Source: a virus. From it: 64,000 bases of DNA. Below the pieces are notes generated by a model. It searched no databases, had not been told where the DNA came from, and saw nothing but the letters and a program-made list of their open reading frames with translations. The position numbers and the translations under genes were made by a program. Shown here piece by piece: positions 11,613 to 64,000 of the stretch (position 1 is the stretch's first letter; each line of letters begins with the position of its first letter). The stretch is from IMG/VR virus record IMGVR_UViG_3300034418_008897, positions 1-64,000 of that record; one strand, 5' to 3'.

Positions 11613-12272
11613 TTAATTAGTTACGTAATCTTGTTCTTGATTATCGTGTATATCTAGTATTTTTAAAATAGATTCAGCTAATCCATTAGTGTCCCCCTTT
11701 TTAAATTTATCTATAAGTTCTTTAGTATGTTCTCTACTGAAAATAGTAACGCCAGAATCTATATTAGCAACTACATAACCATTTTCATCTAGAACCTGTA
11801 GTCTATCTTCTTCAGGTTTTACATCATCTATTTTTACTTTGTAGATTTTTTCTCCGACTAATTCAAAAGAACCACCTTCTTTAAATTTTCTTACACCTTT
11901 AGCTTGCACATCTAAATGCTCAAATGGTTCTATTTTTTGCCCTACTCTAAGATTTAACTCCTCTACAACTCCTTGATTTAATTCTAAAACCATTGCGCTA
12001 TTGTACATAGCAGGAACACCGGTTTTATCATTTTTATTTAAAGAAGCTGTTTGTAATATTGTCCAATTTTCATCTAAAAATAAAAAATCTAAACCAAAAT
12101 TCATATCTTTCATTACCATATGAACTCTCATAGGTTGAGGGAAAATAAATAACATACCCTTACGTTCCCCTAAATAATCTAAACCAGATAAACCTTTAGC
12201 CTGAGCCTCTGGAGTATCTGCAATAGCTACATCAAAACGAATGTTTTTTATTTTTAAAGGGTATAATGTCAT
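11613..12272 (-). CDS. DUF192 family protein with tagged C-terminal extension, 219 aa
   Basis: Residues 1-115 match the DUF192 (COG1430) pattern: VAIADTPEAQAKGLSGLDYL, GMLFIFPQP, a VHMVMKD segment where the family has MWMKNT, LDFLFLDENW, and a late VLELNQGVVEELNL with LRVGQKI. The biochemical role of DUF192 is unknown; bacterial members are usually exported or membrane-linked, but no signal peptide is seen here. After the domain comes RKFKEGGSF, a copy of the KKGG signature acting as a linker, then a second alpha/beta domain of about 90 residues. The start overlaps the stop of the glycine-zipper gene by one base, implying coupled translation. Confidence 0.75.
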   Translation of the reverse strand: MTLYPLKIKNIRFDVAIADTPEAQAKGLSGLDYLGERKGMLFIFPQPMRVHMVMKDMNFGLDFLFLDENWTILQTASLNKNDKTGVPAMYNSAMVLELNQGVVEELNLRVGQKIEPFEHLDVQAKGVRKFKEGGSFELVGEKIYKVKIDDVKPEEDRLQVLDENGYVVANIDSGVTIFSREHTKELIDKFKKGDTNGLAESILKILDIHDNQEQDYVTN

Positions 12273-13831
12273 TATAATAAAGATTTAGAATAATCGTATG
12301 TATTTTTTTCCAATTCTTCATGTAAAAACTTACCCAGCTCTTCTATGGCTTTTTTATCCCCAGCTTTAGCTTTTTTTCTAAGCTCTTGTATTACTTGGCT
12401 GGAAGCAGCGTTTACCATAAGCTCTAGGCTTTCAACTTCAGCTAATTTTTCAGCCCCGCCTTTTTTCATTTTTACAACTGGTAGTCCTTTATCTCCTTTT
12501 ACACCTGTATTATTTTCTTCTTCGTGGGAAGGACCTGCTAAAATTACATTTTCTTTTTTTAAATCCAGTTCCCCACCTCTTTTAAATATAGGTTTGCAAC
12601 CACAAGATGATTTAACAGCTTTACCGCCTTTTTTAAATTTTATTTTACCACCGCAAGAGCAATTAGGTTTTGCTTCTATTTTACCACCTTTTTTATAACT
12701 GGTAGGCATTATATTTCTTTTTTGCTCTTTTTGAGAAGCTATTTGTAAAATGTTAATAACTATTTTTGGGTCTATATTTAATTTAGCAGAGATTTTTTCT
12801 GGTTCATTACCATCTTTATATAAACTAACAACAGTACTAATAGCTTGTTTTTGTTGGTCTTCAGTTAAAGAAGATAAATCCAAATATTCTTTTTTAGGAA
12901 CATTTTCCCCTGTTACATTATTTACAAGCAAAGAGCTCTGCATTTTTTGGTAAGGGTTTTTAAATGTAGGTATTTTAGGTAAAGTTGGCATTGCTAATTT
13001 ACCACCTTTTTTAAACATAGGTTGTTGTTCTAACCCTTGTATTTGTTGCATTTTATATCTATCCCTTGCTTGAATACCATATTTAGTGTTTTGTTTCTTT
13101 ATAAGCTCATTGGCTCTATTTATAGCATCTTTCTGCTGGTTTCTTTCTTCTAACACTTTTTTCTTTTTAATAGATCCACCAATAACACCGCCTATAGCAC
13201 CACCAACAGCTCCTATAGCACCACCAACAAGACTACCTACACCAGGTAGTATCATACCACCAATAGTAGAACCCGCAGACATTCCTTTACCAGCCCATTC
13301 CAAAGCTTGAGAACCTACATAACCTTTTAAATTATCTCTTTCTAAAGCTTTATCTTCTAATTTTTGACCAGCAAATCCCATACCAGCCCCAGCCAATCCT
13401 ATACCTAAGCTTGCAGCGGCAGTACCCACAGTACCAACTTTACCAATACCAGTAGCAGCTTTTACAGCTCCGTCTTTACCTATTTTTAAACCAGTAGCTA
13501 TTTTAGTACCAGCTTTTGCAGTTTCTCTGGCTGCGGCTAAAGCTTTTGCTCCAGCTATTGCAGTAGTAGTTGCTTGGCTTATAGCTTGTTGTTTATCTCT
13601 CTGTACTTTATAAGGATCTACTTTATATTCAGGTTTAGCAATTTGTGCTTGTTCTACAAATCCTGATGGATCATTAGTGATTGGCGTTGTGCTAGGTATA
13701 CTACTAGAATAAGAAAAATTATTATTCTTTTTCTTTTCACTCGGCTTATATAAAAGCGGAGATGACCCCGAACCGCCATAAGGGCTGATTGTAGGGTACA
13801 TTGATCCAGCGTTAAATCTGTTGTTATTCAT
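12272..13831 (-). CDS. Glycine-zipper protein with five KKGG repeats and a CxC pair, 519 aa
   Basis: The N-terminal 70 residues are Ser/Pro/Asn-rich. Residues about 85-220 hold Ala/Gly helices ending in a classic glycine zipper (GGAIGAVGGAIGGVIGGS, about 203-220) followed by KKKK, typical of proteins that insert into membranes. Five tag-like elements follow: FKKGG (273), YKKGG (379), FKKGG (399), FKRGG (416) and MKKGG (455). Between them CSC (391-393) and CGC (410-412) could bind a metal. The C-terminal 90 residues are helical, with a GPSHEE segment. It lies directly downstream of the endolysin. A membrane-channel or pilot role in DNA ejection is an inference. Confidence 0.65.
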   Translation of the reverse strand: MNNNRFNAGSMYPTISPYGGSGSSPLLYKPSEKKKNNNFSYSSSIPSTTPITNDPSGFVEQAQIAKPEYKVDPYKVQRDKQQAISQATTTAIAGAKALAAARETAKAGTKIATGLKIGKDGAVKAATGIGKVGTVGTAAASLGIGLAGAGMGFAGQKLEDKALERDNLKGYVGSQALEWAGKGMSAGSTIGGMILPGVGSLVGGAIGAVGGAIGGVIGGSIKKKKVLEERNQQKDAINRANELIKKQNTKYGIQARDRYKMQQIQGLEQQPMFKKGGKLAMPTLPKIPTFKNPYQKMQSSLLVNNVTGENVPKKEYLDLSSLTEDQQKQAISTVVSLYKDGNEPEKISAKLNIDPKIVINILQIASQKEQKRNIMPTSYKKGGKIEAKPNCSCGGKIKFKKGGKAVKSSCGCKPIFKRGGELDLKKENVILAGPSHEEENNTGVKGDKGLPVVKMKKGGAEKLAEVESLELMVNAASSQVIQELRKKAKAGDKKAIEELGKFLHEELEKNTYDYSKSLL

Positions 13832-36857: not shown

Positions 36858-37478
36858 TTATTTTTTGTATATTAAACTATTTAAAATACCGCCTTTTTTC
36901 CATAATTCAGTACAAGCTAAATGTCTTGCTGTACCTGGTTTCGCAGTACTACATTTATGTCTTGCTTTAAAAGCTTTTCTTTTGGAGTCTACATTATTTA
37001 CATAACGTTTATCTCCTGCATGGACTAGTTTCTTTTTACCATCTATACAGTAAAGCTTCATAATTTTTTTATGCTTACGGGTAGATCTTTTAGTTTGACC
37101 GCATTTCATATCTGATTTTACAGACCCGCCCTTTTTATATAGCAACATTCCTAATTTAGCTTTTGAAACTTTTTTACCCATACCTTTATTTTTCTTTTCG
37201 GATATTTTCTTTTTTAAATTTTTACCTTTAGGCATATTAGGAGTTTTTGAGCTGACTTTTTTACTGGGTCTACAATACTCAGTTTTACCACCTGAACCGC
37301 AATCTTCACCAGAAATTTTATCTTTCCATTTTTCGTCTCCCCATCTTTTTAAATCCGACCCTTTTTTAGTTTTTCTTACATCTCCTTTAGACTTTCTACA
37401 TTTAGCAATAAGTTGACTACGCCTAGCAGAGTTGGGCATTTTAGCAGCAAATTTTTTATAACAAGCATCTTTACTCAT
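36858..37478 (-). CDS. Highly basic Cys-rich protein, DUF5872-like, with KKGG tags, 206 aa
   Basis: Over a quarter of residues are Lys or Arg. The segment GSDLKRWGDEKWKDKISG (about 40-57), followed by CGS...TEYCRPSKKVSSKTP (about 61-80), matches my memory of DUF5872, a small domain of phages and large viruses. Two tag elements are present: LLYKKGGS (about 112-119) and KKGGILNSLIYKK at the C-terminus. Spaced Cys residues could bind metal. The start overlaps the ferritin stop by one base, so both are made together. DNA- or iron-core-binding in the virion is an inference. Confidence 0.65.
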   Translation of the reverse strand: MSKDACYKKFAAKMPNSARRSQLIAKCRKSKGDVRKTKKGSDLKRWGDEKWKDKISGEDCGSGGKTEYCRPSKKVSSKTPNMPKGKNLKKKISEKKNKGMGKKVSKAKLGMLLYKKGGSVKSDMKCGQTKRSTRKHKKIMKLYCIDGKKKLVHAGDKRYVNNVDSKRKAFKARHKCSTAKPGTARHLACTELWKKGGILNSLIYKK

Positions 37479-43266: not shown

Positions 43267-44433
43267 TTAAAAATCACTGTGTAAATCATCTAAATCTACA
43301 AAATTTTCTTTTCTAATAGGTTCTTCTTTACTAGACCCTGAAGTGCTATTGTTATTTATACTCCCACTTATTGGTCTAGAAGGCATACCATTTAAAGCTT
43401 CATTTTTACCGTTTTGATAAGCTTTAGCAATTTCTTTTTTATAATATTGTTCTAAATTGTCGAAATAAGCTTCTCCATTTTTATACATCCAAGCAGCTTT
43501 AAATAAAGTTTTAGGATCAGAAAAAACTTCTTCCATAAATAAAGAGTCTCCATATTCATTAGTCTCTAGTAAATCATGTAAGATATTATTTTTATCTTCA
43601 TCACTAACTTTAAAACCGGCAATATCGTTAATATCTTGTACTACGGTTACAATAGTAGACCTTTGTTCTTCCAACATATTATTGAACTCTTCTTGTTGTT
43701 GTAATTCTACGGTTCTATTAATTTCTTCTTGTTGTTTTGTAAATTGCTCTCTTAGGCGATTTACATTTTTTTCATACAATTTACTCTCTTTCTGCCTAGT
43801 AAGTTCTTCCGCTAAATCTTCTTCTGAAGCTTCTGGGTCACTTTCTTTTAGCCATCTCATCATAACTGCATCGTCAGCCATACTAGAAAAATCTGTAGAA
43901 TTAGATTCGTTAAAAGCTAAAATTTGCTCTACCCTTGCTTGTGCTAATGATTCAATAGATTGTTGTAGCGGTTGGTTTTGCTGTCTTAACCAGTTAATTA
44001 AACCTATTTCTTCTTCATCTAAACCATATCTAGACTCAATATCTGGAGAAGATGTAGCAGATAAATCTTGTAAAATATTGAATTTTTCTGATTCTGTTAA
44101 CTCATTGAAATGTTTAGCCTCACCATCTTCAAAGTTAATCATACCCCCTACAATCCCATACTTAGATAAAAATTGTTCAATACCTGGTGTATTATCATCT
44201 ACTTGAGACTCTCCTTCAGCTCCTATTTGGCTTCTGTCTGAACTTGTTTGGTCACTTTGACTATCTTTTTCATTGCTTGCACTAGTTTCAGAGGCACTTT
44301 GCCCTTCGGCTGTTTTTTCAGTTCCTTCTGTGCTTTCTGCATTTACTTCAGATGTAAATTGCGTTCCTTCTTGTGTTCCTTCTTGAGCGTCATCATCGTT
44401 ATGTAACGCGTCAAGGTTTAATTCTTCACTCAT
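43267..44433 (-). CDS. Capsid scaffolding protein candidate, 388 aa
   Basis: A very acidic protein directly before the capsid gene. Residues 1-85 are a Ser/Thr/Glu/Gln low-complexity region; residues about 100-330 are helical with coiled-coil segments (LREQFTKQQEEINRTVELQQ); and the C-terminus is acidic (FVDLDDLHSDF). Acidic, helical, low-complexity and next to the capsid gene is the usual profile of a scaffold. The N-terminus (NLDALHNDDD) and C-terminus carry related LDxLH motifs, also found in a 60-aa protein near terL. Confidence 0.75.
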   Translation of the reverse strand: MSEELNLDALHNDDDAQEGTQEGTQFTSEVNAESTEGTEKTAEGQSASETSASNEKDSQSDQTSSDRSQIGAEGESQVDDNTPGIEQFLSKYGIVGGMINFEDGEAKHFNELTESEKFNILQDLSATSSPDIESRYGLDEEEIGLINWLRQQNQPLQQSIESLAQARVEQILAFNESNSTDFSSMADDAVMMRWLKESDPEASEEDLAEELTRQKESKLYEKNVNRLREQFTKQQEEINRTVELQQQEEFNNMLEEQRSTIVTVVQDINDIAGFKVSDEDKNNILHDLLETNEYGDSLFMEEVFSDPKTLFKAAWMYKNGEAYFDNLEQYYKKEIAKAYQNGKNEALNGMPSRPISGSINNNSTSGSSKEEPIRKENFVDLDDLHSDF

Positions 44434-46474: not shown

Positions 46475-47125
46475 TTATTCTATTGTTCTATATATAACAT
46501 CTTGTGCTTCATCATTTAAAATCCAGTTACCCACACCTTCTAATTTATAAGCGTAAGGCACTGTGCTTTTTTCTCTAGTTACAGTTTTATTACCATCTTT
46601 ATCTGTAGTAATTACAGTAACATATTTATAAATAGCATCTTTAAACTCTTTTGTTGGAGAGTTTTCTTCAAGTTCTATTTTTGGTTTTAATTCTTTAGAA
46701 GGAGAAATCTCAACAATAGATAAAGCCGCCCTCATTGGCATCTTATCTACTTTAGGCTTTTCTTTTTTAACTTCTTCAATTTTTGGAACAGAAGCTGCAA
46801 CAGTTTTTAAAACTACTTTTTTAGGTTGCTTTATATCTTCAAAACTGCTTATATTAAACGGTTGATTATTTTTAGCTTCTAACCTTTTAATAGCTGGTAC
46901 TATAACAGTAGCCTCATAAGATCTATTTTTTTCAGTATAATCTTGGTATGCTTTAACTTTTTCCTCTTGAGTATTTAAAGTTTTTAATTTAGATTCTAAT
47001 TCTTTAAAATAATTAAAAACTTTTGCGCTATCCGCTTCACTTTCTTTTAAGCCAGTTAAAGCTATGGGGTCTGTTGTGTAATAAACCCCGCTTGTACCAC
47101 TCTGATATTTTTTTAGTAGTGACAT
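46475..47125 (-). CDS. Tagged protein after portal, 216 aa
   Basis: The N-terminus MSLLKKYQSGTSG is a clear copy of the LLxKKYQxG tag. A helical segment (about 25-75), a Lys/Pro/Val-rich linker (about 100-145) and a beta-rich end follow. The start abuts the portal stop. It is the only clear N-terminal tag carrier inside the head module, suggesting an internal head protein. Function unknown. Confidence 0.6.
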   Translation of the reverse strand: MSLLKKYQSGTSGVYYTTDPIALTGLKESEADSAKVFNYFKELESKLKTLNTQEEKVKAYQDYTEKNRSYEATVIVPAIKRLEAKNNQPFNISSFEDIKQPKKVVLKTVAASVPKIEEVKKEKPKVDKMPMRAALSIVEISPSKELKPKIELEENSPTKEFKDAIYKYVTVITTDKDGNKTVTREKSTVPYAYKLEGVGNWILNDEAQDVIYRTIE

Positions 47126-53307: not shown

Positions 53308-53490
53308 CTAAATTTTATATTTATCCCATTTACTATCTTCTTCCATCTGCGGTCTGTGTAATCTTGCAATAGTAGTCTCTTTATAAGTTTTGTGTAAAGG
53401 ATCTTTTTTAATTTTAGGTTCTACAATTTTTTTATTGTCATCGTAAACTTCAAATCCTTCGTCGCTGTCGTGTAGATCGTCTAAGTTCAT
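53308..53490 (-). CDS. Small protein with LDDLH motif, 60 aa
   Basis: The N-terminus MNLDDLHDSDEGFEVYDD repeats the motif found at the C-terminus of the scaffold (VDLDDLHSD) and, weaker, at its N-terminus (NLDALHNDDD). The rest is polar and basic. It ends in TAG, uncommon here where TAA dominates. It could bind the same partner as the scaffold, for example the capsid protein. A 64-bp AT-rich gap without signal lies downstream. Confidence 0.5.
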   Translation of the reverse strand: MNLDDLHDSDEGFEVYDDNKKIVEPKIKKDPLHKTYKETTIARLHRPQMEEDSKWDKYKI

Positions 53491-53491
53491 T

Positions 53492-55228
53492 TTAATTTTG
53501 TTTTTGATAGATAATTTTACCGTTTTTTATTTGTTTTATTATATTACCTTTCGAGTCAAAAAAATCTATTACTCTAGAATCTGCCCCTAAAGTATTATCT
53601 AAAACTTCTTGCTCTCTAGATACAGGGTTTGTTCTTCTTGAAATATAGGGCTCAAATCCTTCTTCTATAGTAGTCTTTATAAATCTATCTTTATAATTAG
53701 AGTTAGTTTCTATGCTTTTTTTCATTAAGTCTCTTGCTGATTTTTCCCTTAATCTAGTTGCTTCTTTTAATTGATTAAACTCATCTAAATTTCTAGGCAT
53801 ACCAAGGCGAACAGAGTTAAAACTTTGAGGTTTTTCAACAGAAAGAAGAGTTGGTTGTTTTGCTTTTTTAATTGGGTATTTTAAAGCCATTACAGCAACC
53901 GGGTCTATCATTACATCAGCGATGGTATTAGTAACAGGATTATTTATTCCTTTGCTTTGTAAATAAGAACTTGGAGTTAAATGTTTGTTATTTGTAAACG
54001 CAGACATCATCATGTTTTGAGGAATGCTAAACATATCTAATAAAGTAGTATTATTAGATAATTCTATTTTTTCTGTACCAGGTTTATTATTTCTTAAATT
54101 ATCTTCGTAAATTTTATTTTTAACATCTTCTTCTTGTGCAGGTATAGCATTTTTATTTAACTCTGCTGCACGTTTACCATCTGGATCTTTAATTGGAACA
54201 TATCCGTTTGTTTTTCCAGGAATATTAATCATCCAACCAAATGCACCTTTCTGGTACCTTACACCTGGTCTACTTGGGTAGGTGTAGGTAACTGGACTTG
54301 TGCCATTTTGGTATTTTTTAATGTATAAAATTCCGCCTTTGCGAGCCATCATTATTTTATTTTTATTATTTGTATTAGCAATAGTATTAAAAATTTCTAA
54401 TAAATCATTGTCATTAAATCTCTGCTCTAATTGTTCAAGTTGATTTCTCCCATTTATACCTTTCATTTTAGCTTTTATTTTTTCTAAAATTTCCGGGGTC
54501 ATTGTTTCTGTATAAGGATCGAAAATGTTATTATCTTTTGCAAATTGCAATATTGCATCTTTTCTAGCACTTATTTCTTCTAATCTACCTAAATAATTTA
54601 ATTCCTTCAAGTTATTAATAATATGTTGCTTGCCTTGGTCGGTTTTTAAAAAATCTTCATAAGGCATCGACATAAAGAAATTATTTTCTTGTTCATATTT
54701 TAATTTAGCGTTTTGTGCTAATTTTGTGTCTTTAAAAAGCTCATATGCTTTATAAGGATTATTGTAATCAAATATAATTGCTTTTGCTTCAGGCATTTTT
54801 TCTGGCGTTGCAATTTGCCACTTTTGGTAATCATATTTTGGGAATGTATGGCCAGTTTCATTACTATTAGACATATGTCTATATTCATGAGTTTTAACAT
54901 AAGGATTATAATCTGGCATATTTGTAAACAAAGTAACATTTCTTTTACCTTCATAATAATTAGGGCTAGGATTAGCTTCCCCTAATACATTTGATAAAAT
55001 AGGAGGTTCATTTGTTTCAAAATCATTTAAATTTTTTAACCTTTCAGTTATTATTTCATCTGCTTTCAGTTGTAATTCTTCTTTATTTAAATTTGGAAAA
55101 TCTTTACTTAAAGAATTCAGTAATAATTCTTTGTGTTTAGGTGAATTAAACCAACCTTCTAAATATTCTTTTGAGTCGCTTGGGCTAACTAAAGTATTAC
55201 CTTTTTGATATTTTTTTAATAATGCCAT
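53492..55228 (-). CDS. Fusion cargo protein: zincin-like metalloprotease plus second tagged half, 578 aa
   Basis: The N-terminal tag MALLKKYQKG is followed by a zincin-like domain with HEYRH (114-118, HExxH) and a likely third ligand in LEEISARKDA (E218 or nearby), the usual spacing of a gluzincin. At 297-309 RKGGILYIKKYQN reads as a C-terminal tag joined to a new N-terminal tag. The second half then begins with the shared module PSRPGVRYQKGAFGW ... VPIKDPDGKRAAELNKNAIP (about 318-363) and continues with a hydrophobic region (SIPQNMMMSAF; IADVMIDPVAVMALKY). This looks like two cargo proteins fused in frame. Protease activity is inferred from motif. Confidence 0.7.
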   Translation of the reverse strand: MALLKKYQKGNTLVSPSDSKEYLEGWFNSPKHKELLLNSLSKDFPNLNKEELQLKADEIITERLKNLNDFETNEPPILSNVLGEANPSPNYYEGKRNVTLFTNMPDYNPYVKTHEYRHMSNSNETGHTFPKYDYQKWQIATPEKMPEAKAIIFDYNNPYKAYELFKDTKLAQNAKLKYEQENNFFMSMPYEDFLKTDQGKQHIINNLKELNYLGRLEEISARKDAILQFAKDNNIFDPYTETMTPEILEKIKAKMKGINGRNQLEQLEQRFNDNDLLEIFNTIANTNNKNKIMMARKGGILYIKKYQNGTSPVTYTYPSRPGVRYQKGAFGWMINIPGKTNGYVPIKDPDGKRAAELNKNAIPAQEEDVKNKIYEDNLRNNKPGTEKIELSNNTTLLDMFSIPQNMMMSAFTNNKHLTPSSYLQSKGINNPVTNTIADVMIDPVAVMALKYPIKKAKQPTLLSVEKPQSFNSVRLGMPRNLDEFNQLKEATRLREKSARDLMKKSIETNSNYKDRFIKTTIEEGFEPYISRRTNPVSREQEVLDNTLGADSRVIDFFDSKGNIIKQIKNGKIIYQKQN

Positions 55229-55252
55229 ATTATTATATATATTATAAATATT

Positions 55253-55408
55253 TTATTTTTTCAAGTTATGTATAGAATCTATTATATAATTTAAACAAGT
55301 ATCATTATATTTAACGTAATATTTAGCAAATTTTGTTAAGTTATTTATATTTTCCGGGCTAGCATCTGCCATATCCCCTTTTAAAACTTCAGGTAAATCA
55401 AAATTCAT
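55253..55408 (-). CDS. Very small protein, 51 aa
   Basis: The ATG at 55408 is preferred because it follows the stop of the 738-aa gene by one base; a TTG at 55438 would overlap it. The peptide (MNFDLPEVLKGDMADASPEN then a helix ending HNLKK) is polar and has no recognised motif. It may be a small partner of the neighbouring cargo proteins. Confidence 0.45.
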   Translation of the reverse strand: MNFDLPEVLKGDMADASPENINNLTKFAKYYVKYNDTCLNYIIDSIHNLKK

Positions 55409-55409
55409 A

Positions 55410-57626
55410 TTACTTATTTCCTTTGTTATAATTTTCAAGGTCTTTTTTTACTCTGTCCATATGTCTTTTTGCCATATAGCCTAGAGGAATACTTGTTGCG
55501 CCAAGCAAACCAGCAGCCCCCTTTATAAACTTATTATTTGAAGCTTTATCCCAGTCTCTAAGCACATCCATTTGCTTTGTATTAGCTGCATTTTTAGTAC
55601 CCAACATAGTTAATTTAGCTGTTGTTTTTTGATTATCTCCTAAAGTACCTGGAGAAAATTCTTCAATAGTTTCAATAAGCTTATTGCCTTTATGATCAAA
55701 AAATTCACCTGAATCGTTGTAATATATTCTATTTTTCAAATCAAAAGGTTTACCACCTGTTAAAGAAGAAACTTCAAAATCTCTGACTTTATTAGGTAAG
55801 AATTTCATCTTTTTTAATGGTTGTAAATCCCATGTATCTGTAAAATCAATAAATTTTCTACCTTGCTCATCTACACCTTTTGTAATCCAACCATTACCAT
55901 GCACACCACCAAAATTTAATTCTTTTTCAATTTCCATAGTACCAAATGATTTTTTAGGATTATCTATTATTTTTTGCAGTTTATTCTTCTCTAATTTAAA
56001 ATCATTCAGCGCTAATGTATTATCTGCGTTTTTAGAGAAAGTATTAAACTCAGGTTCTAATCCGTTGTATAATCTCCAAGAATCAAATCTATTTTTAGTA
56101 GCGTAAGTTTTTGGCTTAAACTTCAAAGCTTTAGGTGTTATTACTTCTAATGGGGCTCCAGCTACTGTAAATAAATCATAACCTATAGGAGTTATAGATC
56201 TATTAACAATTTTACCTAACAAATTATTTTTAGCTTGCTTTGTATAGGTTTTCATTATTTCTTTTTGTCTCTCAGGACTAAATCTAAAACCAAAACCTTC
56301 ATATTTATTTGTAAATTGATTCCATTTAGCATCATTATATTTTCTTTTTAAACCTTTTAAAAAATCACCTTTGGGGGCAACAATATCTTCTCCAAGATTA
56401 ATTAAATCTTGTGGAGCTACATGAGAAGCTACTCCATGAATAAAATCTACCTTATTTACATTTATATTTTTAAGTTCTGGATTTAATTTTACTAAAGATT
56501 CATATACAACATTTAATTCAACTGGCTCTACAAGTCCTGCTTGAGATCTTCTAGCAAATTCATTTAATCTATTAACATCAACTCCTTCTGGTAAAACATA
56601 GTCATGCCCAAATTGAGGATTTACAAGTTTTGATTTTTTAATAGAAGGTTCAAATTTTTTAGTAACAAAATTATAATAGGAATCAGAATTCTTTTTAATA
56701 GCATCCACTGCTCTATAATGTACAGGATCTATACCTACTTGAGTCTTAGCAGATTGTAAATTATATTTTGGAAATTTATATTCAAAATTAGGTGAGCCTG
56801 GTAGTTGTTTAGTAAAATTATTAGCTAATAAACCCCTAGCATCATCTGCATATTTACCTAATACTTTACCGCCTAATCTTACCACATCAGGAGCCTTGTA
56901 TAATAATCCTGCAGGAGCTGTAACTATACCCGGCAAAGAAGCTGCATTTAAAGTATTTGGTGTGTATCTACCTGATAAAGCATCTCCTAATGTAGTAGGT
57001 TGATCGGCATTAGTAGCATATTTCATAACAAATGAACCTGGTATATCTGCAAAAGAAAGAGCATCAGCAGCATTTCCTAATTTTTGCATTACACCTTTAG
57101 GGTAGTAATATTTCGCTTCTTCAGCTGGAGTTAATCCTTTTATATCAGGTGTAAAAGTCGGTCCTTGCTTTCCTGTTAAATTTAAGAAGCTGTTAGCTGC
57201 GGATACTGCTCCACCTTTGGTTCTTGCCCACAATGAAGGCTCTATATATTTAGCATATTTAGAGTTAGGCATTGCTTTAGAAAGAATCTTAGCGTTAACT
57301 AAGTTATTCATTATAGACTCTCTATCTGTAAGATCTATATTATTTTCTTTAGCATACTGCTCTATAACATAATTATTTCTATCATAATCATATCGATTGT
57401 GTATCCTTTGTTCAGCTTGCTCAGGAAAATTTCTTTCGTTTACATTAAATAAATTTTGTAGTCCTTTATTACCTTTGTTTAAGTAATTATCTTTTTCATT
57501 TATAAGGTAATCACGATAAGGATTTTTAGAATTATAATCATTATAATACCTAGTTAAAGGAGTTATAGATGTTTCCTTTAACGTCTTTCCTTTTTGGTAT
57601 TTTCCTATTTTATTATATAACATCAT
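55410..57626 (-). CDS. Tagged cargo protein of unknown function, 738 aa
   Basis: The N-terminal tag MMLYNKIGKYQKGK marks it as a member of the tagged group. Residues about 175-260 are Ala/Gly/Leu-rich and hydrophobic (LSFADIPGSFVMKYA; LPGIVTAPAGLLY), perhaps membrane-active. The middle is mixed with a repeat-free alpha/beta pattern (HYRAVDAIKKNSDSYYNFV, FIHGVASHVAP). The last 30 residues hold a hydrophobic segment (AAGLLGATSIPLGYMAKR). No enzyme motif recognised. Neighbours upstream are the polyvalent protein and two wall hydrolases, suggesting delivery into the host. Confidence 0.6.
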   Translation of the reverse strand: MMLYNKIGKYQKGKTLKETSITPLTRYYNDYNSKNPYRDYLINEKDNYLNKGNKGLQNLFNVNERNFPEQAEQRIHNRYDYDRNNYVIEQYAKENNIDLTDRESIMNNLVNAKILSKAMPNSKYAKYIEPSLWARTKGGAVSAANSFLNLTGKQGPTFTPDIKGLTPAEEAKYYYPKGVMQKLGNAADALSFADIPGSFVMKYATNADQPTTLGDALSGRYTPNTLNAASLPGIVTAPAGLLYKAPDVVRLGGKVLGKYADDARGLLANNFTKQLPGSPNFEYKFPKYNLQSAKTQVGIDPVHYRAVDAIKKNSDSYYNFVTKKFEPSIKKSKLVNPQFGHDYVLPEGVDVNRLNEFARRSQAGLVEPVELNVVYESLVKLNPELKNINVNKVDFIHGVASHVAPQDLINLGEDIVAPKGDFLKGLKRKYNDAKWNQFTNKYEGFGFRFSPERQKEIMKTYTKQAKNNLLGKIVNRSITPIGYDLFTVAGAPLEVITPKALKFKPKTYATKNRFDSWRLYNGLEPEFNTFSKNADNTLALNDFKLEKNKLQKIIDNPKKSFGTMEIEKELNFGGVHGNGWITKGVDEQGRKFIDFTDTWDLQPLKKMKFLPNKVRDFEVSSLTGGKPFDLKNRIYYNDSGEFFDHKGNKLIETIEEFSPGTLGDNQKTTAKLTMLGTKNAANTKQMDVLRDWDKASNNKFIKGAAGLLGATSIPLGYMAKRHMDRVKKDLENYNKGNK

Positions 57627-57628
57627 TT

Positions 57629-60142
57629 TTAATTTTGTTTTTTATTCCAAGGGTTATAAAGTAAAGATCCTAAACCTATTGGAGCTAATGCCTTATATAT
57701 ATTAGGGTTAGTCATGTCAAACATTCCATTATTACCTATTAAAGATTTAAGTCTATTGTTACCTTTAAAGAATATTACATCATCCCCTATATCTTCTCCT
57801 GGTTTTAACTTTAAAGAATTATCATAATTATCTACAACATTTTTAGCTGTAAAAGAATCGAACCCTTGTTTTTTATATCTTTCTGCTAATTTATTAGTAG
57901 TAAGAGGCGAAGTTTCACGAGCATTAGGATCTAAAAAATCATTTTTTTGGATTGTCATATCTTTTTTATAAGGGGCAGATTCAGGTAAAGATTTTAAATA
58001 TTTTTCTGCTGCTTGTTTTGATCTAAATGTATTTCCTTCTGGAGACAGCATATTACCAAAAGCATCATATTGCATACCTTCTTTATTATTAGAACCTACG
58101 ACATAACCACTTTTCTTACCTATCCAACTATTTCCTTTATAATCTACAGATTTATTTTTACCTAAATTTGCTCCTAATTCTAGCACCTTACCTTTATCCC
58201 CAGCATAAGTTTTAGCTATGTTTTTGTTAGTAGTCGTAAAAATTAGGTCAGGGTATAAATTTCCACTAGTTAATCTTTCTGCTTTACTTAAATCAAATTC
58301 TGTTAAATCTCTAGCTGGAGTTCCGTGGTATAGTACATTTTTATACATATTTTCAGCTTGTTTTTCCCCCCCTGCAAATCTTGTTAAATTTTTAGATTTC
58401 ATTTGGACAAACTGTTCTGGACTACCGTTGAATTTAGTACCGTCACTATATTTCATCCATGTTCCATCAGCTTTAGCTTGTTGCTCAATAGCATTATACT
58501 CTTGCATTAAAGCTTTATTTTCTGGTATTTCTTTATTCCATTTACCCCAATCTATTTCAGATTTAAAATCTTGAGTAGGTAATAAATCAGATAAGTATTT
58601 ATTTGTATTGATTACTTTAGATTTATCTGCTTTTGCTACTACTTCATCTATACTGTTTTTCCATTCTGTTATATCGTATTTAGCACCGCGTTTTTCTATT
58701 CTTTTTACAAACTCATCTTTTGGTATATTTATAATTTTATCAAAAGAGTCTAAATTATTCCTTAATAAGTTTGTATTTGATGTAAACAATACTTGCCCTT
58801 TACTTTTAGCTTCTTTTTTAACTTCATCAAATAAAGACTGCATCATTTGATTATATTCTTTATTCCATACTTCATTACCTCCGTTCTTTACTTGATATGT
58901 AGAAATATTATACTTTTTTGCAATATCATTTACTGAATTATTTATAACATCTGCATAGTCATCATCTAAAGATAAAAACCTATTGTCACCGGCTTGCTTT
59001 AAATAACTTTTACCTATAGTTGGATGACCAAATATAATTTCATCTGTGTTATTTATTACCGGTTCAAAAACACTTCCTGTAGCTTGCCCTACATCTTGAG
59101 CTTTTGCTCCTACAACTGCTTTATTATAAGCTTTTCTAACAATTGGATTATATTTTGCACTAGCTGGGTTTAATTGAGGCACTAACACAGATCTGAAATC
59201 GTTAGCTACACTAGTTGGAGTGGAACTAATCCTAGGAATTATTTTATTACCTATAATATTGTTTAATTTAGAAGAGTTGCTTAACCTCATAGTTTCCAAA
59301 GCAGCGCTTTCTCCCATGTTCATTAACCTACCAGAACGACCAATTAATTTAGTACCTGGTATAAGATCTAAAGCCGTAAATGCCGTTGAAGTTAAAGCAT
59401 TTTGCCAATCCTCCATTTTACCGCTTTTTATTGCTTTTCTTATGTCCTCTTCAGTGTAAAGAGCATCATTACCAGCATTAATTAAAGCAGTAGTTGGGTG
59501 TAAATATGAAGCTGCGTTTAAACCTTTTAAAACAGTGTTATTATCAAAAACGGGATCTGAAAATCCAGGCGATCTTTCCATAGCACTATAATTCATAGGC
59601 ATATTGAAAGGCCCAGGTTTTAAAAAATAAGCTGTTGCTACTAGAGGGTTTCTAATTATGTTTCCAGCTTTATCTGCCCAAGTATATTCAGGAGCCGATT
59701 GTATTGTCCCAGGATCTTTCGGATATACCATTGCTGGTATATAACTATCTATTTTGTTTGTATCTAATAGGATTTTAGCTTTATCTTCTTCAGACAACCA
59801 ATTAGCATTTTTAATTTTATCTACTACTATAGATCTTTCAGCAGCTCTTCTTTTTGAACCCTCTTCAACTATATTAGCAGCTGTATTAGCTATAAGTAAA
59901 TTTTTTGGTTGAGTTGATTCAGCAACTTCTACTCTAGGTAAAGAATTAAAATTAGCTGTATTAAAATTAGAATAAGGTATAGCGTTCTTATTTAATTCTG
60001 CTGTTCTTTGTTCTACATTTCCAGCAGTTAATGGTAAATATTTACCATTAATTTCTTTAAACCATTTATCTCCTTCTTTCTTATAATTGTGGTTATTATA
60101 TCTATAATACCCGCCGTCTTGATATTTTTTTAATAATGCCAT
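57629..60142 (-). CDS. Polyvalent cargo protein: kinase-like P-loop plus ADP-ribosyltransferase-like domain, 837 aa
   Basis: Order: tag MALLKKYQDGG (1-11); shared module ending RTAELNKNAIP (46-56); a hydrophobic stretch (about 205-280); a P-loop domain with FGHPTIGKS (371-379), SLDDDYADVI and FDKIINIPKDEFVKRIEKRG (467-486); a linker TWMKYSDGTKFNGSPEQFVQ (561-580) typical of phage and conjugative polyvalent proteins; then an ART-like domain with YHGTPARDLTEFD (605-617) and FTTTNKNIAKTYA (635-647). The usual catalytic Glu was not located with certainty. The P-loop domain is paralogous to one in the giant protein. It probably enters the host with DNA and modifies host targets; this is inference. 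Confidence 0.7.
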   Translation of the reverse strand: MALLKKYQDGGYYRYNNHNYKKEGDKWFKEINGKYLPLTAGNVEQRTAELNKNAIPYSNFNTANFNSLPRVEVAESTQPKNLLIANTAANIVEEGSKRRAAERSIVVDKIKNANWLSEEDKAKILLDTNKIDSYIPAMVYPKDPGTIQSAPEYTWADKAGNIIRNPLVATAYFLKPGPFNMPMNYSAMERSPGFSDPVFDNNTVLKGLNAASYLHPTTALINAGNDALYTEEDIRKAIKSGKMEDWQNALTSTAFTALDLIPGTKLIGRSGRLMNMGESAALETMRLSNSSKLNNIIGNKIIPRISSTPTSVANDFRSVLVPQLNPASAKYNPIVRKAYNKAVVGAKAQDVGQATGSVFEPVINNTDEIIFGHPTIGKSYLKQAGDNRFLSLDDDYADVINNSVNDIAKKYNISTYQVKNGGNEVWNKEYNQMMQSLFDEVKKEAKSKGQVLFTSNTNLLRNNLDSFDKIINIPKDEFVKRIEKRGAKYDITEWKNSIDEVVAKADKSKVINTNKYLSDLLPTQDFKSEIDWGKWNKEIPENKALMQEYNAIEQQAKADGTWMKYSDGTKFNGSPEQFVQMKSKNLTRFAGGEKQAENMYKNVLYHGTPARDLTEFDLSKAERLTSGNLYPDLIFTTTNKNIAKTYAGDKGKVLELGANLGKNKSVDYKGNSWIGKKSGYVVGSNNKEGMQYDAFGNMLSPEGNTFRSKQAAEKYLKSLPESAPYKKDMTIQKNDFLDPNARETSPLTTNKLAERYKKQGFDSFTAKNVVDNYDNSLKLKPGEDIGDDVIFFKGNNRLKSLIGNNGMFDMTNPNIYKALAPIGLGSLLYNPWNKKQN

Positions 60143-60147
60143 AATAC

Positions 60148-61953
60148 TTATTTTGCAAAGTTTTTAGCAAAATTAGCCTTCTTGACCATCTTACTACTAT
60201 ATTTATTCTTATTAGCTAAAATATGGCTAGCTGCTTCTTGAACATCCATGCCCATTTTTGTAGCTTGCGCTTTAAATGTACCTTTCTTTTCAGGATCTAT
60301 TTTTATAGTATTTCCTTTTTTATATAAAAGACCACCTTTTTTAAAAATTGCAGTTTGAGGTATACTCTTACCTGCTGTTGATCTTATATAATTATCTAAA
60401 TTATACATGGTTTTATTTACATACTTATTTTTTGTGGCATCACCACGCAATAGTACACCTGGACTACGCCAAGCAGTTGCCCATCTTTCTTCAGGGCTTA
60501 ATTCTACATTACCCTCTGCTTGCCTATAAACTTCACCGTTTTTTACACTGTATAAATTGCCTTGATTGGGGTAGTATTTTTCTACTTCTTTTCTTAATAA
60601 AGCAGTTTTATATTGATCATCAACGTCATAATTTAAGAATACTCTTTTACCATTAGGTAGCATATAATAACCATCAAATGTTTCATCTGGTTTTTGAAAT
60701 GAACTACCTCTTAAATCCCTGGAAAAGAATTGCTTAGGTGAAGACCACATACCAGGAGCTTCTTTACTTTTAATAACCCTAGGATTTTCATTACCCCTAT
60801 TATATAAGCTCTTAGAAGATTTATCCAATTGGCTCAAATATATCATAGAAGCTAAACCAGCTTTATAAGGATCTTTTAAATCAGATCTAGATCTAATACC
60901 ATATTTATCCGCTATACTCGCTAACCTAGGGTCGTTAAAAATATTATCTGGGTTTATTTGAGTCATACCTATACTACTACCTACTAATTCTGAAGCATAC
61001 CCTTTGATTCCCTTCAAAGATTTACCGCCTTTGGTTTCGGTCATAGCAGTTGCGGTTAAAAAGTTAACCATTTGTTTGTATTTATCTGGGTCTAAATTTA
61101 AATCTTTAGCTAAATTATTTGCGTGTTGAACTAAAGCTAAAGTAAAATTACCTAAATCATGAGTTAAATATTTTTCCCCCTCACTACTATTATTTACTGC
61201 TTTTTCAAAACCAACTGATTTTTTAATTTTATCATAAGGATTTTGCACTTCAAAATCGTAGGATTTATTTTGCTCATCAAAAAACTTTTGAAAAAATTCT
61301 CTATTTAAATTTAAATTTTCTTCTGGTGCTATAACTGTTTGCAAATTATATTTTTTCCACACTTCTCTAGCTTCTGATAAAGTATATAATTTTTTATCAT
61401 AAGCATCCATTAATATAGATTCCCCAGTATCTTTATCCCATCCTACTTTGATCATAGTATGGTTAGAATTTTTATAGCCTTTGGCTTTAGAATAACCATA
61501 TGGGTGCATATCTTGATCAGGTCCCCATAAATAAAAAGTACCTACAGGGGTATCTAAATCAAAATTTTCATTTCTATTTTCATCTAAAATATTGTAAAAA
61601 GTCTTACCACTATCTGCGTATACCCCTGCTAAATCCCAACTGTCTACAGATCCCTTGTAATCACCTTTTAAATAAGGGTATTTTTCTATTTGTTCTGGTG
61701 TTGGTTGAGTAGATGTTGTCAATAAACCTCTAGCGTTTTCTATATCACCTATAGTTTTTACTCCAGGAATATAACCTAAACCTTTAGTATATAACAAACA
61801 AGCGTCCCCTTTACAATTACCCAGAGTACCTTCTAACATATTATCTCTAAAAAAGTCAGAATTAGCTCTGTCTTCTGCAGTATAAATTACTTTATCTATG
61901 CGAGTATTAAATCCTTTACCTGGTTGAAATTTTTTTACTTTGTTATATAGCAT
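60148..61953 (-). CDS. Bifunctional cell-wall hydrolase: Cys peptidase/amidase-like plus lytic transglycosylase-like, 601 aa
   Basis: The N-terminus MLYNKVKKFQPGKG is a tag. Residues about 40-200 show an NlpC/CHAP-like order: GNCKGDACLLY (C47 or C52), SNHTMIKVGW (H165) and LMDAYDKK (D183). Residues about 260-380 show a lysozyme-like domain: TAMTETKGG (E306), SSIGMTQINPD and DPYKAGLASMIYL, as in SLT transglycosylases. FKKGGLLYKKG lies about 50 residues before the C-terminus. Clustered with a second transglycosylase, it probably opens the peptidoglycan during entry. Peptidase class uncertain. Confidence 0.7.
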   Translation of the reverse strand: MLYNKVKKFQPGKGFNTRIDKVIYTAEDRANSDFFRDNMLEGTLGNCKGDACLLYTKGLGYIPGVKTIGDIENARGLLTTSTQPTPEQIEKYPYLKGDYKGSVDSWDLAGVYADSGKTFYNILDENRNENFDLDTPVGTFYLWGPDQDMHPYGYSKAKGYKNSNHTMIKVGWDKDTGESILMDAYDKKLYTLSEAREVWKKYNLQTVIAPEENLNLNREFFQKFFDEQNKSYDFEVQNPYDKIKKSVGFEKAVNNSSEGEKYLTHDLGNFTLALVQHANNLAKDLNLDPDKYKQMVNFLTATAMTETKGGKSLKGIKGYASELVGSSIGMTQINPDNIFNDPRLASIADKYGIRSRSDLKDPYKAGLASMIYLSQLDKSSKSLYNRGNENPRVIKSKEAPGMWSSPKQFFSRDLRGSSFQKPDETFDGYYMLPNGKRVFLNYDVDDQYKTALLRKEVEKYYPNQGNLYSVKNGEVYRQAEGNVELSPEERWATAWRSPGVLLRGDATKNKYVNKTMYNLDNYIRSTAGKSIPQTAIFKKGGLLYKKGNTIKIDPEKKGTFKAQATKMGMDVQEAASHILANKNKYSSKMVKKANFAKNFAK

Positions 61954-61968
61954 ATCTTTTTTTTTGTT

Positions 61969-62862
61969 TTATTTTTTATACAATAAACCGCCTTTTTTGA
62001 ATTTGTAAGTTTTAACAGCTTTAGCATATTGTCTTTCAAACTCAGGGTTAGATTTATATAAAATTTTATTTACATAATCTCTAGTTTCTCTAGGTAGCTC
62101 GTTCATCCACTCTTTCCCTTTATAAATATCTACGCCTTTTTTCTTTTGTTCATTCAAATATTCTAAAAAATTACCTCTTCCATGGTTGTAAGCTGCTAAA
62201 GTTTTAGCTAACCTTATCTCATTAGATTGATTAGGTTTATTAATGAAAGATGCATTATACAAATCAGTCATGTACCATTTCTGAATCTTAGCACTAACTT
62301 CAGGATCATATAAACTATCTGTAGATTTTATTATTCCTGCTTTTACAGCATCCCCCTTTACATCAGGCATTATTTGCGCTAAGCCAGCAGCACCAGCGGG
62401 AGATACTGATTTAGGGTTAAAGCTAGATTCTTTAAATTGTTGTCTTAATAAAAAATCATTAGTGAATATTTCAGAATTTACTTTAGGCTCTGCTTTAGGC
62501 TCAGGTTTAGCATCTGATACAAGTTTAGGCTCAGAAGAATCTTTAATATATCTTTCTGGTTTTTCTGGTTCACCAAAGAAAGACTTACCATAAGCAGGTA
62601 CATCTGTTCTTAGTTGTGTAGATGGTAATCTAAGCTCATCATTTAACTTTGATTTGCGAGATCCATCGGGGTCTTTTATAGCTACATAGTAACCATTAGT
62701 ACTTTCATTCTTTATAAACCAATCATCAAAAGCATCTTTCATATAAGTAGATCCTGGTCTTTCAGGGTGTACATATATTTTTTTATCGAAAATATCTGCT
62801 TCATTTATAGTTCTACCTGGAGCTTTAGGTTTTGGTTTTTTATCGTTGTACAATAAAGACAT
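61969..62862 (-). CDS. Lytic transglycosylase (SLT family), tagged, 297 aa
   Basis: The ATG at 62862 (MSLLYNDKK) fits the tag pattern and avoids overlap; a TTG at 62874 is less likely. Residues about 30-70 carry the shared module (HPERPGSTYMKDAFDDWFI ... AIKDPDGSRKSKLN). A linker rich in Lys, Pro and Glu leads to an SLT domain: QQFKESSFNP with catalytic E145, SPAGAAGLAQIMP, AAYNHGRGN and LPRETRDYVNKIL. The C-terminus is the tag YKFKKGGLLYKK. It cleaves peptidoglycan glycan strands and is likely used during DNA entry. Confidence 0.88.
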   Translation of the reverse strand: MSLLYNDKKPKPKAPGRTINEADIFDKKIYVHPERPGSTYMKDAFDDWFIKNESTNGYYVAIKDPDGSRKSKLNDELRLPSTQLRTDVPAYGKSFFGEPEKPERYIKDSSEPKLVSDAKPEPKAEPKVNSEIFTNDFLLRQQFKESSFNPKSVSPAGAAGLAQIMPDVKGDAVKAGIIKSTDSLYDPEVSAKIQKWYMTDLYNASFINKPNQSNEIRLAKTLAAYNHGRGNFLEYLNEQKKKGVDIYKGKEWMNELPRETRDYVNKILYKSNPEFERQYAKAVKTYKFKKGGLLYKK

Positions 62863-62870
62863 AATTAAAA

Positions 62871-63125
62871 TCAATTCATTAAACTAAATTTTTGTCTGTA
62901 AGCTAATTTCTTACTAACTACCTCATTATCAGCAATTTCTCTTACAGAACAAAATATAATATTTTCTTCTCCATACTTATCATACATATTTTGTATAGCT
63001 TCTACAGGATGTTTTCCTTCTCTTAAAAGCTTAAGATGTACAGAAACACTAGCATTAAAATCTTGAGTAGTATTAATGTAGATGTACTCATCTTGTATAC
63101 TAGTTATGTAGTAAAGAGTTGCCAT
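62871..63125 (-). CDS. Degenerate GIY-YIG domain protein, 84 aa
   Basis: The sequence follows GIY-YIG nucleases closely: LYYITS...YIYINTTQDF, then VHLKLLREGKH, IQNMYDKYGEENIIF and SVREI, matching I-TevI-like order GIYQI, YVGSAKDF, RH, L.KG.H, LQ..F.KHG and EEI. The catalytic Arg after YVGS is replaced (NASVS), YIG has become YIN, and the Glu helix is degenerate. It is therefore probably not a nuclease; it may bind DNA or be a relic. It ends in TGA, 8 bp before the transglycosylase ATG. Confidence 0.75.
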   Translation of the reverse strand: MATLYYITSIQDEYIYINTTQDFNASVSVHLKLLREGKHPVEAIQNMYDKYGEENIIFCSVREIADNEVVSKKLAYRQKFSLMN

Positions 63126-63147
63126 AGAAATTTATAGTAAATAAAAA

Positions 63148-63177
63148 AGAAAAAACCAGAATAAATTAATATCCTGG
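63148..63177 (-). terminator. Intrinsic terminator
   Basis: On the minus strand CCAGGATA and TATTCTGG (one G-U pair) form an 8-bp stem with loop TTAATT followed by six T residues. It lies about 28 bp after the 248-aa gene, separating it from the GIY-YIG-like gene and the rest of the cargo cluster. Confidence 0.85.
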
Positions 63178-63205
63178 CTGAAATTTTTATATGTAAAATA
63201 ATAAA

Positions 63206-63952
63206 TTAAAATCTATATTTTAAACCTGCTCTGATATTATAATTAGAGTCGTATTTACCTTTATCATATCTACCTTCTAAATTACCTGATAATTTAGGCG
63301 TGAAATATTTTTCGGCATTAATATTAGCGCCTACTCTGTAGTTTTCATTCTTACCTAGACCTTTTTCAGCGGAAGCAGAAACCCCTAAATAACCATTCTT
63401 CAAAGGCACTCCTTTATTAACATTATAGCCTAAAGAAAAGCTAGGGCGGCTTATACCTTTATATGTCACAAATTCAGGAAATCCGGGTGCACTAGGTATT
63501 TTATCCATAGCGTAGTTAGCCTCAGCCTTGACCCCTAGGGACCCTAAATTTTTAGGTAAGTCTTTGTATAAACTAGACTCGAACCTATTAAACTCTTCTA
63601 TCTGCGGATATTGTTCTATTATTTTTTCACCATTTTTATCTACATCTTCATAAATTCTCATTCTCTTTGCCTTCTCAAGGCTAGCCATACCATCAACTCT
63701 AAAACCTTTAGGCAAAGCAGCACCAGCACCACCCATTTTCATATAGTCATTGGGAGCTTCTAATCTTTCTTCATGGCTCCACCCATAAGCAGTAGGATTC
63801 CATCTACCAACAGGAGCTGATAAATTTATCCTAGGTTCTTCTTTTTCTACTAAAGGGCTGGTATTCATAAACTTATGTTTAAGGTCTAAATCCTTTATAT
63901 AGGAATTTATAGTACCTTCTGTTTGATATTTTTTAGTATATAGTAAAGACAT
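63206..63952 (-). CDS. Tagged protein with outer-membrane beta-barrel-like C-terminus, 248 aa
   Basis: The N-terminus MSLLYTKKYQTEGT is a tag; no signal peptide is present. The last 110 residues alternate polar and small/hydrophobic residues in strand-turn-strand order (SFSLGYNVNKG, YLGVSASAEKGLG, YRVGANINAEKYF, LSGNLEGRYDKG, YNIRAGLKYRF) and end in Phe, as outer-membrane barrels do. About six strands can be drawn. A virion protein that inserts into or mimics the host outer membrane is possible; a soluble beta protein is the alternative. Confidence 0.6.
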   Translation of the reverse strand: MSLLYTKKYQTEGTINSYIKDLDLKHKFMNTSPLVEKEEPRINLSAPVGRWNPTAYGWSHEERLEAPNDYMKMGGAGAALPKGFRVDGMASLEKAKRMRIYEDVDKNGEKIIEQYPQIEEFNRFESSLYKDLPKNLGSLGVKAEANYAMDKIPSAPGFPEFVTYKGISRPSFSLGYNVNKGVPLKNGYLGVSASAEKGLGKNENYRVGANINAEKYFTPKLSGNLEGRYDKGKYDSNYNIRAGLKYRF

Positions 63953-63954
63953 AA

Positions 63955-64000
63955 TTATTTTTTATTATATAATATTCCTCCTTTGTTAAACTTATAACTA
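63955..64000 (-). CDS. C-terminal end of an upstream tagged gene (partial)
   Basis: Only the last 14 codons are in the window: SYKFNKGGILYNKK then TAA. The end is nearly identical in pattern to the C-terminus of the 297-aa transglycosylase (YKFKKGGLLYKK), so the gene belongs to the tagged cargo group. The stop lies 2 bp before the start of the 248-aa gene. The rest is outside the window. Confidence 0.6.
   Translation of the reverse strand, partial: SYKFNKGGILYNKK

What the first reader, a model, noticed from the sequence alone, without database searches (positions are those of the whole stretch)
53492..64000. A shared LLYxKKYQxGG / KKGGLLYKK tag on about fourteen otherwise unrelated proteins
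Seen directly: N-terminal copies MALLKKYQDGG (837 aa), MALLKKYQKG (578), MSLLKKYQSG (216), MSLLYTKKYQTEG (248), MLYNKVKKFQPGKG (601), MMLYNKIGKYQKGK (738), KFQTGG (696) and KFQMGG (101). C-terminal copies YKFKKGGLLYKK (297 aa), YKFNKGGILYNKK (partial gene at right edge), KKGGILNSLIYKK (206) and FRKGGKLL (101). Near-terminal or inter-domain copies in the 601-, 519- (five times), 219- and 206-aa proteins. The carriers include wall hydrolases, a protease, an ART-like protein, a DUF192 protein and a ferritin neighbour, so common descent of whole genes is unlikely. A virion packaging, sorting or double-glycine processing signal is my inference; I know of no described function.
Basis: partly seen in the sequence, partly recalled or inferred. 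Interest (0 to 1): 0.88.

Follow-up and report, generated by a model that had tools for sequence, protein, structure and literature searches.

The report
Shared cargo tag in crass-like phage
A group of crass-like phages puts the same short peptide tag on the ends of many otherwise unrelated proteins (wall-cutting enzymes, a peptidase, barrel proteins), most likely as a label that loads them into the virus particle for delivery into the next host cell; experiments with a tagged reporter protein would test it.

Summary
The tag is real and not chance. In the 80.5-kb source record, 10 of 60 minus-strand (late) proteins carry K[FY]Q within the first 25 residues (0.35 expected) and none of 43 plus-strand proteins do. 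Two further carriers lie beyond the right edge. The tag has two halves in mirror order: M-x-LL(Y)-K-K-Y-Q-x-G at N-termini and FKKGG-LLYKK at C-termini. Codons and upstream DNA differ between copies, so the peptide is what is conserved. Relatives keep it on non-homologous genes in an island upstream of the terminase gene. Internal copies sit where genes that are separate in relatives are fused. A tagged peptidase is homologous to phi14:2 gp081, a virion protein found by MS/MS that also carries the crass cargo-1 domain. A 60-aa island protein shares a DDLH motif with the scaffold ends and with nothing else in the lineage. Best explanation: a docking tag that loads ejected cargo into the procapsid, like T4 capsid-targeting sequences but double-ended and apparently uncleaved. 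Double-glycine processing is not supported. No virion proteomics exists for this lineage. New variant of a known kind.

The parts
63958..63996 (-). C-terminal tag YKFNKGGILYNKK of the 474-aa ORF (63955-65379 of the record; its N-terminal tag MSLLYVEKFQKGRR lies beyond the window)
63914..63952 (-). N-terminal tag MSLLYTKKYQTEG of the 248-aa protein
62836..62862 (-). partial N-terminal tag MSLLYNDKK of the 297-aa SLT transglycosylase (likely ATG start at 62862)
61972..62007 (-). C-terminal tag YKFKKGGLLYKK of the 297-aa SLT transglycosylase
61912..61953 (-). N-terminal tag MLYNKVKKFQPGKG of the 601-aa protein
60316..60345 (-). internal tag FKKGGLLYKK of the 601-aa protein, at the start of a C-terminal module that is part of a short separate gene in relatives
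60110..60142 (-). N-terminal tag MALLKKYQDGG of the 837-aa protein
57585..57626 (-). N-terminal tag MMLYNKIGKYQKGK of the 738-aa protein
55199..55228 (-). N-terminal tag MALLKKYQKG of the 578-aa zincin-like peptidase protein
54302..54343 (-). internal tag RKGGILYIKKYQNG of the 578-aa protein, between its peptidase half and a second domain; reads as a C-tag joined to an N-tag
53308..53490 (-). 60-aa island protein with scaffold-end motif NLDDLHD at its N-terminus; candidate adaptor
47099..47125 (-). N-terminal tag MSLLKKYQS of the 216-aa protein next to the portal gene
43267..44433 (-). scaffold protein (388 aa; assigned by position between portal and major capsid genes); DDLH-type motif at both ends
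37125..37148 (-). internal tag MLLYKKGG of the 206-aa protein, at the junction of two genes that are separate in a relative
36861..36902 (-). C-terminal tag WKKGGILNSLIYKK of the 206-aa protein
12455..13015 (-). stretch of the 519-aa protein (cargo position) with five [FYM]K[KR]GG copies
11871..11885 (-). FKEGG copy behind the DUF192 domain of the 219-aa protein
10614..10631 (-). N-terminal KFQMGG of the 101-aa protein (RFMQQGG in the same-position gene of MT835470)
10377..10400 (-). C-terminal FRKGGKLL of the 101-aa protein
8918..8986 (-). N-terminal tag MSLLF...KINKFQTGG of the 696-aa protein (cargo position)

Best explanation
The tag is a virion-loading (cargo-docking) peptide. Shown: a hydrophobic-basic LL(Y)K anchor sits at the extreme N- or C-terminus, followed on its inner side by a basic-aromatic, glycine-ended hinge (KYQxG or FKKGG); it is conserved as peptide, not DNA; it marks exchangeable modules and stays at the junction when modules fuse; carriers are encoded with late genes. 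Inferred: during procapsid assembly the anchors bind a common receptor (scaffold, the 60-aa scaffold-end mimic, portal-bound cargo, or capsid), so that wall hydrolases, peptidases and barrel proteins without signal peptides are packed and ejected ahead of the DNA to help entry. The tag is probably retained, not cleaved.
For: Enrichment and late-strand restriction. Peptide-level conservation with varied codons and unrelated upstream DNA. Island-wide tagging of non-homologous genes in relatives, Fisher p = 7e-12 with deliberately loose patterns. Fusion junctions carry the tag: window 206-aa = 118-aa (72%) + 84-aa (89%) genes of a relative; a 296-aa protein contains a 163-aa stand-alone gene (69%) starting at its internal tag. 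The tagged peptidase profile (578-aa and a 298-aa relative tagged at both ends) hits phi14:2 gp081 at E = 9.8e-9; the reverse search of 2057 lineage-locus proteins finds only these two tagged peptidases and no decoy. gp081 is annotated as found by MS/MS and has the Crassvirus cargo protein 1 domain, 2.8e-10. phi4:1 gp040, found by MS/MS, starts MAIRKKYKRG and holds all four [FYW][QK].GG copies of the 101 phi4:1 ORFs examined. MT835470 carries KYQTGG-type tags in the cargo position. DDLH motif shared only by scaffold ends and the 60-aa island protein, with a matching change in one relative. Carriers without obvious signal peptides include SLT lysozymes and a low-confidence predicted 8-stranded barrel.
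Against: No virion proteomics for any tagged phage of this lineage; the virion link rests on one homologous domain and on phi4:1 gp040. crAss001, phi14:2 and cr85_1 load cargo without this tag. Homology of the 519- and 696-aa proteins to crAss001 gp45/gp46 was not supported by profile comparison, so their cargo role is positional. No receptor is identified. Some island genes are untagged (patatin, small ORFs), and several loci 62-73% identical in terminase show no strict tag near TerL, though most are contig ends or carry degenerate forms.
Confidence: 0.62

Rival explanations
1. Packaging tag that is removed: a maturation protease cuts after GG (T4 CTS / prohead-protease style, or double-glycine style), releasing the LLYK anchor from cargo.
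For: In both orientations a cut after GG would separate the LLYK anchor from the domain. T4 capsid targeting sequences are cleaved (PMC9026906). Some tagged proteins are peptidases.
Against: The second G is absent in roughly two thirds of N-terminal copies, while K-Y-Q-x-G is kept. Pfam scans of ten morphogenesis proteins beside the portal and capsid genes found no protease family.
Confidence: 0.12
2. Post-delivery address: the tag directs injected proteins to a place in the host (membrane or a host protein) rather than into the virion.
For: Hydrophobic-basic terminal peptides can bind membranes; several carriers act at the envelope.
Against: The internal 578-aa and 206-aa copies and copies on other proteins (DUF192, 101-aa) do not fit an envelope address well; the neighbouring scaffold-end mimic points to assembly.
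Confidence: 0.12
3. DNA-level linker: the copies are recombination boundary sequences that help swap modules, with no function as peptide.
For: Genes in the island turn over fast and fuse or split at the tag.
Against: Leu, Tyr, Gln and Gly codons vary between copies and the 20 bases upstream are unrelated; tags are not more alike within a genome than between genomes (p = 0.29).
Confidence: 0.04
4. Initiation-context artefact: A/T-rich codons after ATG give LLKKY by composition.
For: All codons of LLKKYQ can be A/T-rich and the genome is A/T-rich.
Against: Absent from 43 plus-strand genes and from core morphogenesis genes of the same genomes; C-terminal and internal copies exist.
Confidence: 0.02
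5. Remnant of one ancestral N-terminal domain: carriers are a duplicated family that diverged.
For: A ~55-aa domain next to the tag is shared by six proteins; the P-loop domain of the 837-aa protein recurs in the 2290-aa ORF.
Against: Most carriers share only about ten residues; the tag also occurs at C-termini and on very small proteins of 52-84 aa.
Confidence: 0.08

Closest known systems
T4 capsid targeting sequence (CTS) of internal proteins IPI-III and Alt
   Same: About ten N-terminal residues shared by otherwise different proteins; sufficient to load foreign proteins into the head, which are then delivered to the host (PMC9026906).
   Different: T4 CTS is removed by gp21; here a mirrored C-terminal form exists, the cut site is not conserved, and no gp21-like protease was recognised.
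P1 DarB N-terminal packaging signal
   Same: First 30 residues direct a reporter to the capsid (PMC9024508).
   Different: Described for one protein; no C-terminal form and no family of carriers reported there.
Crassvirus cargo proteins C1 and C2 (crAss001 gp45, gp46)
   Same: Virion cargo of crass-like phages stored in capsid and tail (PMC10172136); phi14:2 gp081 joins the cargo-1 domain to the same peptidase family.
   Different: There the domains are part of the cargo protein; here they are separate polypeptides with a tag. crAss001 has no such tag.
Phage polyvalent proteins
   Same: Late-gene-encoded enzymes (peptidases, ADP-ribosyltransferases, peptidoglycan hydrolases) thought to be packaged and injected (PMC5512222).
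   Different: Those are fused in long polypeptides; here modules are mostly separate and tagged.
Encapsulin cargo-loading peptides (recalled, not tested)
   Same: Short terminal peptides on flexible linkers that bind inside an HK97-fold shell.
   Different: No encapsulin shell or matching peptide sequence was looked for or found here.

Membership tests
Crassvirales-type phage (host genome of the tag) | Crassvirus major capsid, muzzle and portal proteins | tested here: met
   Crass_capsid 5.8e-17, crAss_MUZ 1.5e-33, portal 5e-19 to crAss001; CrAss_Ring_2 5e-6, just below its cut-off
T4-type capsid targeting sequence | Short terminal peptide shared by several different late proteins | tested here: met
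T4-type capsid targeting sequence | Removed by a prohead protease at a conserved site | tested here: not met
   No conserved site after the tag; no maturation protease family in the morphogenesis genes scanned
T4-type capsid targeting sequence | Sufficient to load a foreign protein into heads | not testable with these tools
   needs a reporter experiment
Crassvirus cargo proteins | Present in virions | tested here: inconclusive
   Only by homology: peptidase domain of phi14:2 gp081, annotated from MS/MS
Crassvirus cargo protein 1 | Sequence homology to gp45 / PF25725 | tested here: not met
   519-aa protein: no PF25725 hit, hhalign not significant; only a Gly-rich stretch by phmmer
Double-glycine leader peptides | Invariant GG before the cut | tested here: not met
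Encapsulin cargo-loading peptides | Encapsulin shell and matching peptide | not tested
   comparison from memory only

The most novel reading that the evidence does not exclude
A two-part cargo-loading code: a double-ended tag on swappable effector modules plus a small adaptor that copies the scaffold protein's end motif (DDLH), so that any module with the tag is packed into the crass-like procapsid and ejected. The adaptor would link the tag (directly or through cargo) to the site the scaffold ends bind.
Probability: 0.3. Interest if true: 0.86.

Novelty: new variant of a known kind. Interest (0 to 1): 0.7.

Why it matters
How crass-like phages select and load their ejected proteins is not known. 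A short, portable tag would make this directly testable, would give a sequence rule for finding unknown injected effectors in uncultured phages of Bacteroidota, and would add a further example, beside T4 and P1, of address peptides for virion cargo. The modular fusion pattern also links separate tagged effectors with the long polyvalent cargo proteins of other phages.

Tried and rejected
Looked for the tag in crAss001, phi14:2 and cr85_1: background only. Strict IMG/VR pattern scans for MxLL..KYQxGG found mostly this lineage. Homology searches with the 519- and 696-aa proteins in IMG/VR and phage records found no relatives; profile comparison with gp45/gp46 failed, so I do not claim they are C1/C2 homologs. 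Concerted evolution of tags within a genome: no signal. DNA-level repeat: rejected. AlphaFold of the 248-aa protein alone was useless (pLDDT 34); the 185-aa relative gave a low-confidence 8-strand sheet (pLDDT 49) whose Foldseek hits are mostly outer-membrane barrels, none below E = 0.001. Literature searches found no description of this motif. In one search the phi4:1 slice was mis-selected (gp040 in place of gp041), so that profile is effectively phi14:2 gp081 alone; the result stands as a one-sequence reverse search.

Full report
Observation. The window is the first 64,000 bases of an 80,524-base virus record. Late genes run on the minus strand up to about 66 kb and early genes on the plus strand after that. 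The phage is crass-like: Crass_capsid 5.8e-17, crAss_MUZ 1.5e-33 and a portal related to that of crAss001. K[FY]Q in the first 25 residues occurs in 10 of 60 minus-strand proteins (0.35 expected, maximum 3 in 1000 shuffles) and in none of 43 plus-strand proteins; [hydrophobic][KR][KRNE]GG occurs 14 times against 1.1 expected. Two further tagged ORFs lie at and beyond the right edge of the window.

Anatomy. Across relatives the N-terminal form is M-x-[LI]-L-[KRY]-K-Y-Q-x-G. In 43 extracts (a few of them chance matches from early genes) the K is kept 42 times, Y 38, L 33, G 31 and Q 30. Longer versions separate two half-motifs, for example MGILYNKGTRKFQEGG and MLLNTKKGSMLPKFQNG. C-terminal forms have the halves in reverse order: FKKGG then LLYKK. 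Thus the LLYK half lies at the very end of the chain and the aromatic-glycine half faces the folded domain, at either terminus. One relative begins MALLYTYQKGGLLYKHP, both forms run together.

Peptide, not DNA. Copies use different Leu, Tyr, Gln and Gly codons and have unrelated upstream bases. Tags are not more alike within a genome than between genomes (p = 0.29). This argues against a recombination linker or recent copying.

Where it occurs. In related IMG/VR contigs the tag marks most larger genes of an island between the early genes and the terminase cassette, while terminase, portal, capsid, scaffold and muzzle genes lack it (loose-pattern Fisher p = 7e-12). Island genes turn over quickly and most share nothing but the tag. 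Among 80 terminase-selected loci the tag is found where terminase identity is about 41% or more and is almost absent below 36%. The human-gut record MT835470 (portal 31% identical) carries KYQTGG-type N-termini on proteins between its muzzle homolog and its RNA-polymerase-size genes, the usual position of crass cargo genes.

Modules. The window's 206-aa protein equals two separate genes of a relative (72% and 89% identity), with the tag LGMLLYKKGG at the joint. A 296-aa protein of another relative contains, from its internal tag onward, a 163-aa stand-alone gene of a third (69%). The last 57 or so residues of the 601-aa protein, starting at LLYKKG, are part of a 99-aa gene elsewhere (68%). These internal copies are therefore fusion joints, and the tag travels with the module.

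Link to virions. The first half of the tagged 578-aa protein and a 298-aa relative (MSLLRKYQKGD ... SKKGGLLYKP) are zincin-like peptidases (HExxH seen in the sequence). Their profile finds phi14:2 gp081 at E = 9.8e-9. In reverse, the gp081 peptidase finds only these two tagged proteins among 2057 proteins of the lineage loci and nothing among reversed decoys. gp081 is annotated from MS/MS and also holds the Crassvirus cargo protein 1 domain (2.8e-10); its close relative phi4:1 gp041 is likewise annotated from MS/MS. So a domain that is fused to a cargo protein in one phage is a separate, tagged protein here. phi4:1 gp040, also annotated from MS/MS, begins MAIRKKYKRG and contains NFQAGG, SYQNGG, TFQIGG and KKFQSGG, the only [FYW][QK].GG sites in the 101 phi4:1 ORFs examined. 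crAss001, phi14:2 and cr85_1 have no such tag.

Carriers. Recognised domains are SLT transglycosylase, DUF192, a weak glucosaminidase match, zincin-like peptidases, and a predicted all-beta protein whose structural neighbours are mostly outer-membrane barrels (low confidence). By eye none has a signal peptide. Envelope-acting proteins without signal peptides, made with late genes, fit packaging and ejection.

Second motif. A 60-aa protein (53308-53490), with orthologs in the islands of seven relatives and a more distant one in an eighth, begins NLDDLHD. The pattern [LIV][DE][DA]LH[DENS] occurs in the 528 lineage proteins only here and at one or both ends of the scaffold. In one relative the scaffold ends GNLWDNEE and the likely counterpart small protein begins with DISDIWGDGEE, a single case of matching change. 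I infer that both bind the same assembly partner, and that the small protein may connect the tagged island to the procapsid. This step is inference.

Mechanism and limits. Most likely the tag docks cargo during procapsid assembly. Shown: distribution, peptide-level conservation, modularity, homology of one carrier to a mass-spectrometry-supported virion protein. Inferred: the receptor, retention of the tag, ejection. Cleavage after GG is less likely because the second glycine is often absent and no maturation protease was recognised. The 519- and 696-aa proteins are cargo candidates by position only; homology to gp45/gp46 failed.

Known relatives of the idea. T4 capsid targeting sequences (about ten N-terminal residues, cleaved) and the P1 DarB signal work in this way. 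No paper describing this motif was found in the searchable library, which does not cover most subscription journals.

Noticed in passing
window 49502-50089: 195-aa protein with GroES (Cpn10) similarity in two stretches, encoded between terminase and portal and conserved in relatives.
   Followed up: partly
window 37478-38044: Ferritin-like protein (PF00210, 7e-18) within the late structural genes, untagged, conserved in relatives.
   Followed up: no
window 1-6870: 2290-aa ORF, cut by the contig end, with helicase-like and P-loop regions; its residues 1981-2164 are homologous to the tagged 837-aa protein (1.1e-19).
   Followed up: partly
window 53492-62874: A ~55-aa domain (..YVPIKDPDG..LNKNA..) next to the tag in several carriers (578-, 837-, 301-aa, also the 474-aa ORF) and in two relatives.
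   Followed up: partly
L011 4675-5592; L015 5265-6173: Patatin-like phospholipase (4.9e-30 for L011) encoded inside the tagged island of relatives but without a tag.
   Followed up: no
L023 2465-5854; L099 8461-11715: Terminase large subunit ORFs of 1129 and 1084 aa, about 350 aa longer than relatives: possible intein or other insertion.
   Followed up: no
L006 (MT835539): Only about 37% coding density with the standard code although it has a portal relative: possible stop-codon reassignment.
   Followed up: no
L080 3252-3470 and 17473-18657: Small island protein (DISDIWGDGEE) and scaffold C-terminus (GNLWDNEE) both differ from DDLH in a similar way.
   Followed up: partly
L044 (G003:C1:67009-67146): 45-aa ORF starting MKKYQIWLD just downstream of the portal gene, with similar small ORFs in several relatives.
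   Followed up: no
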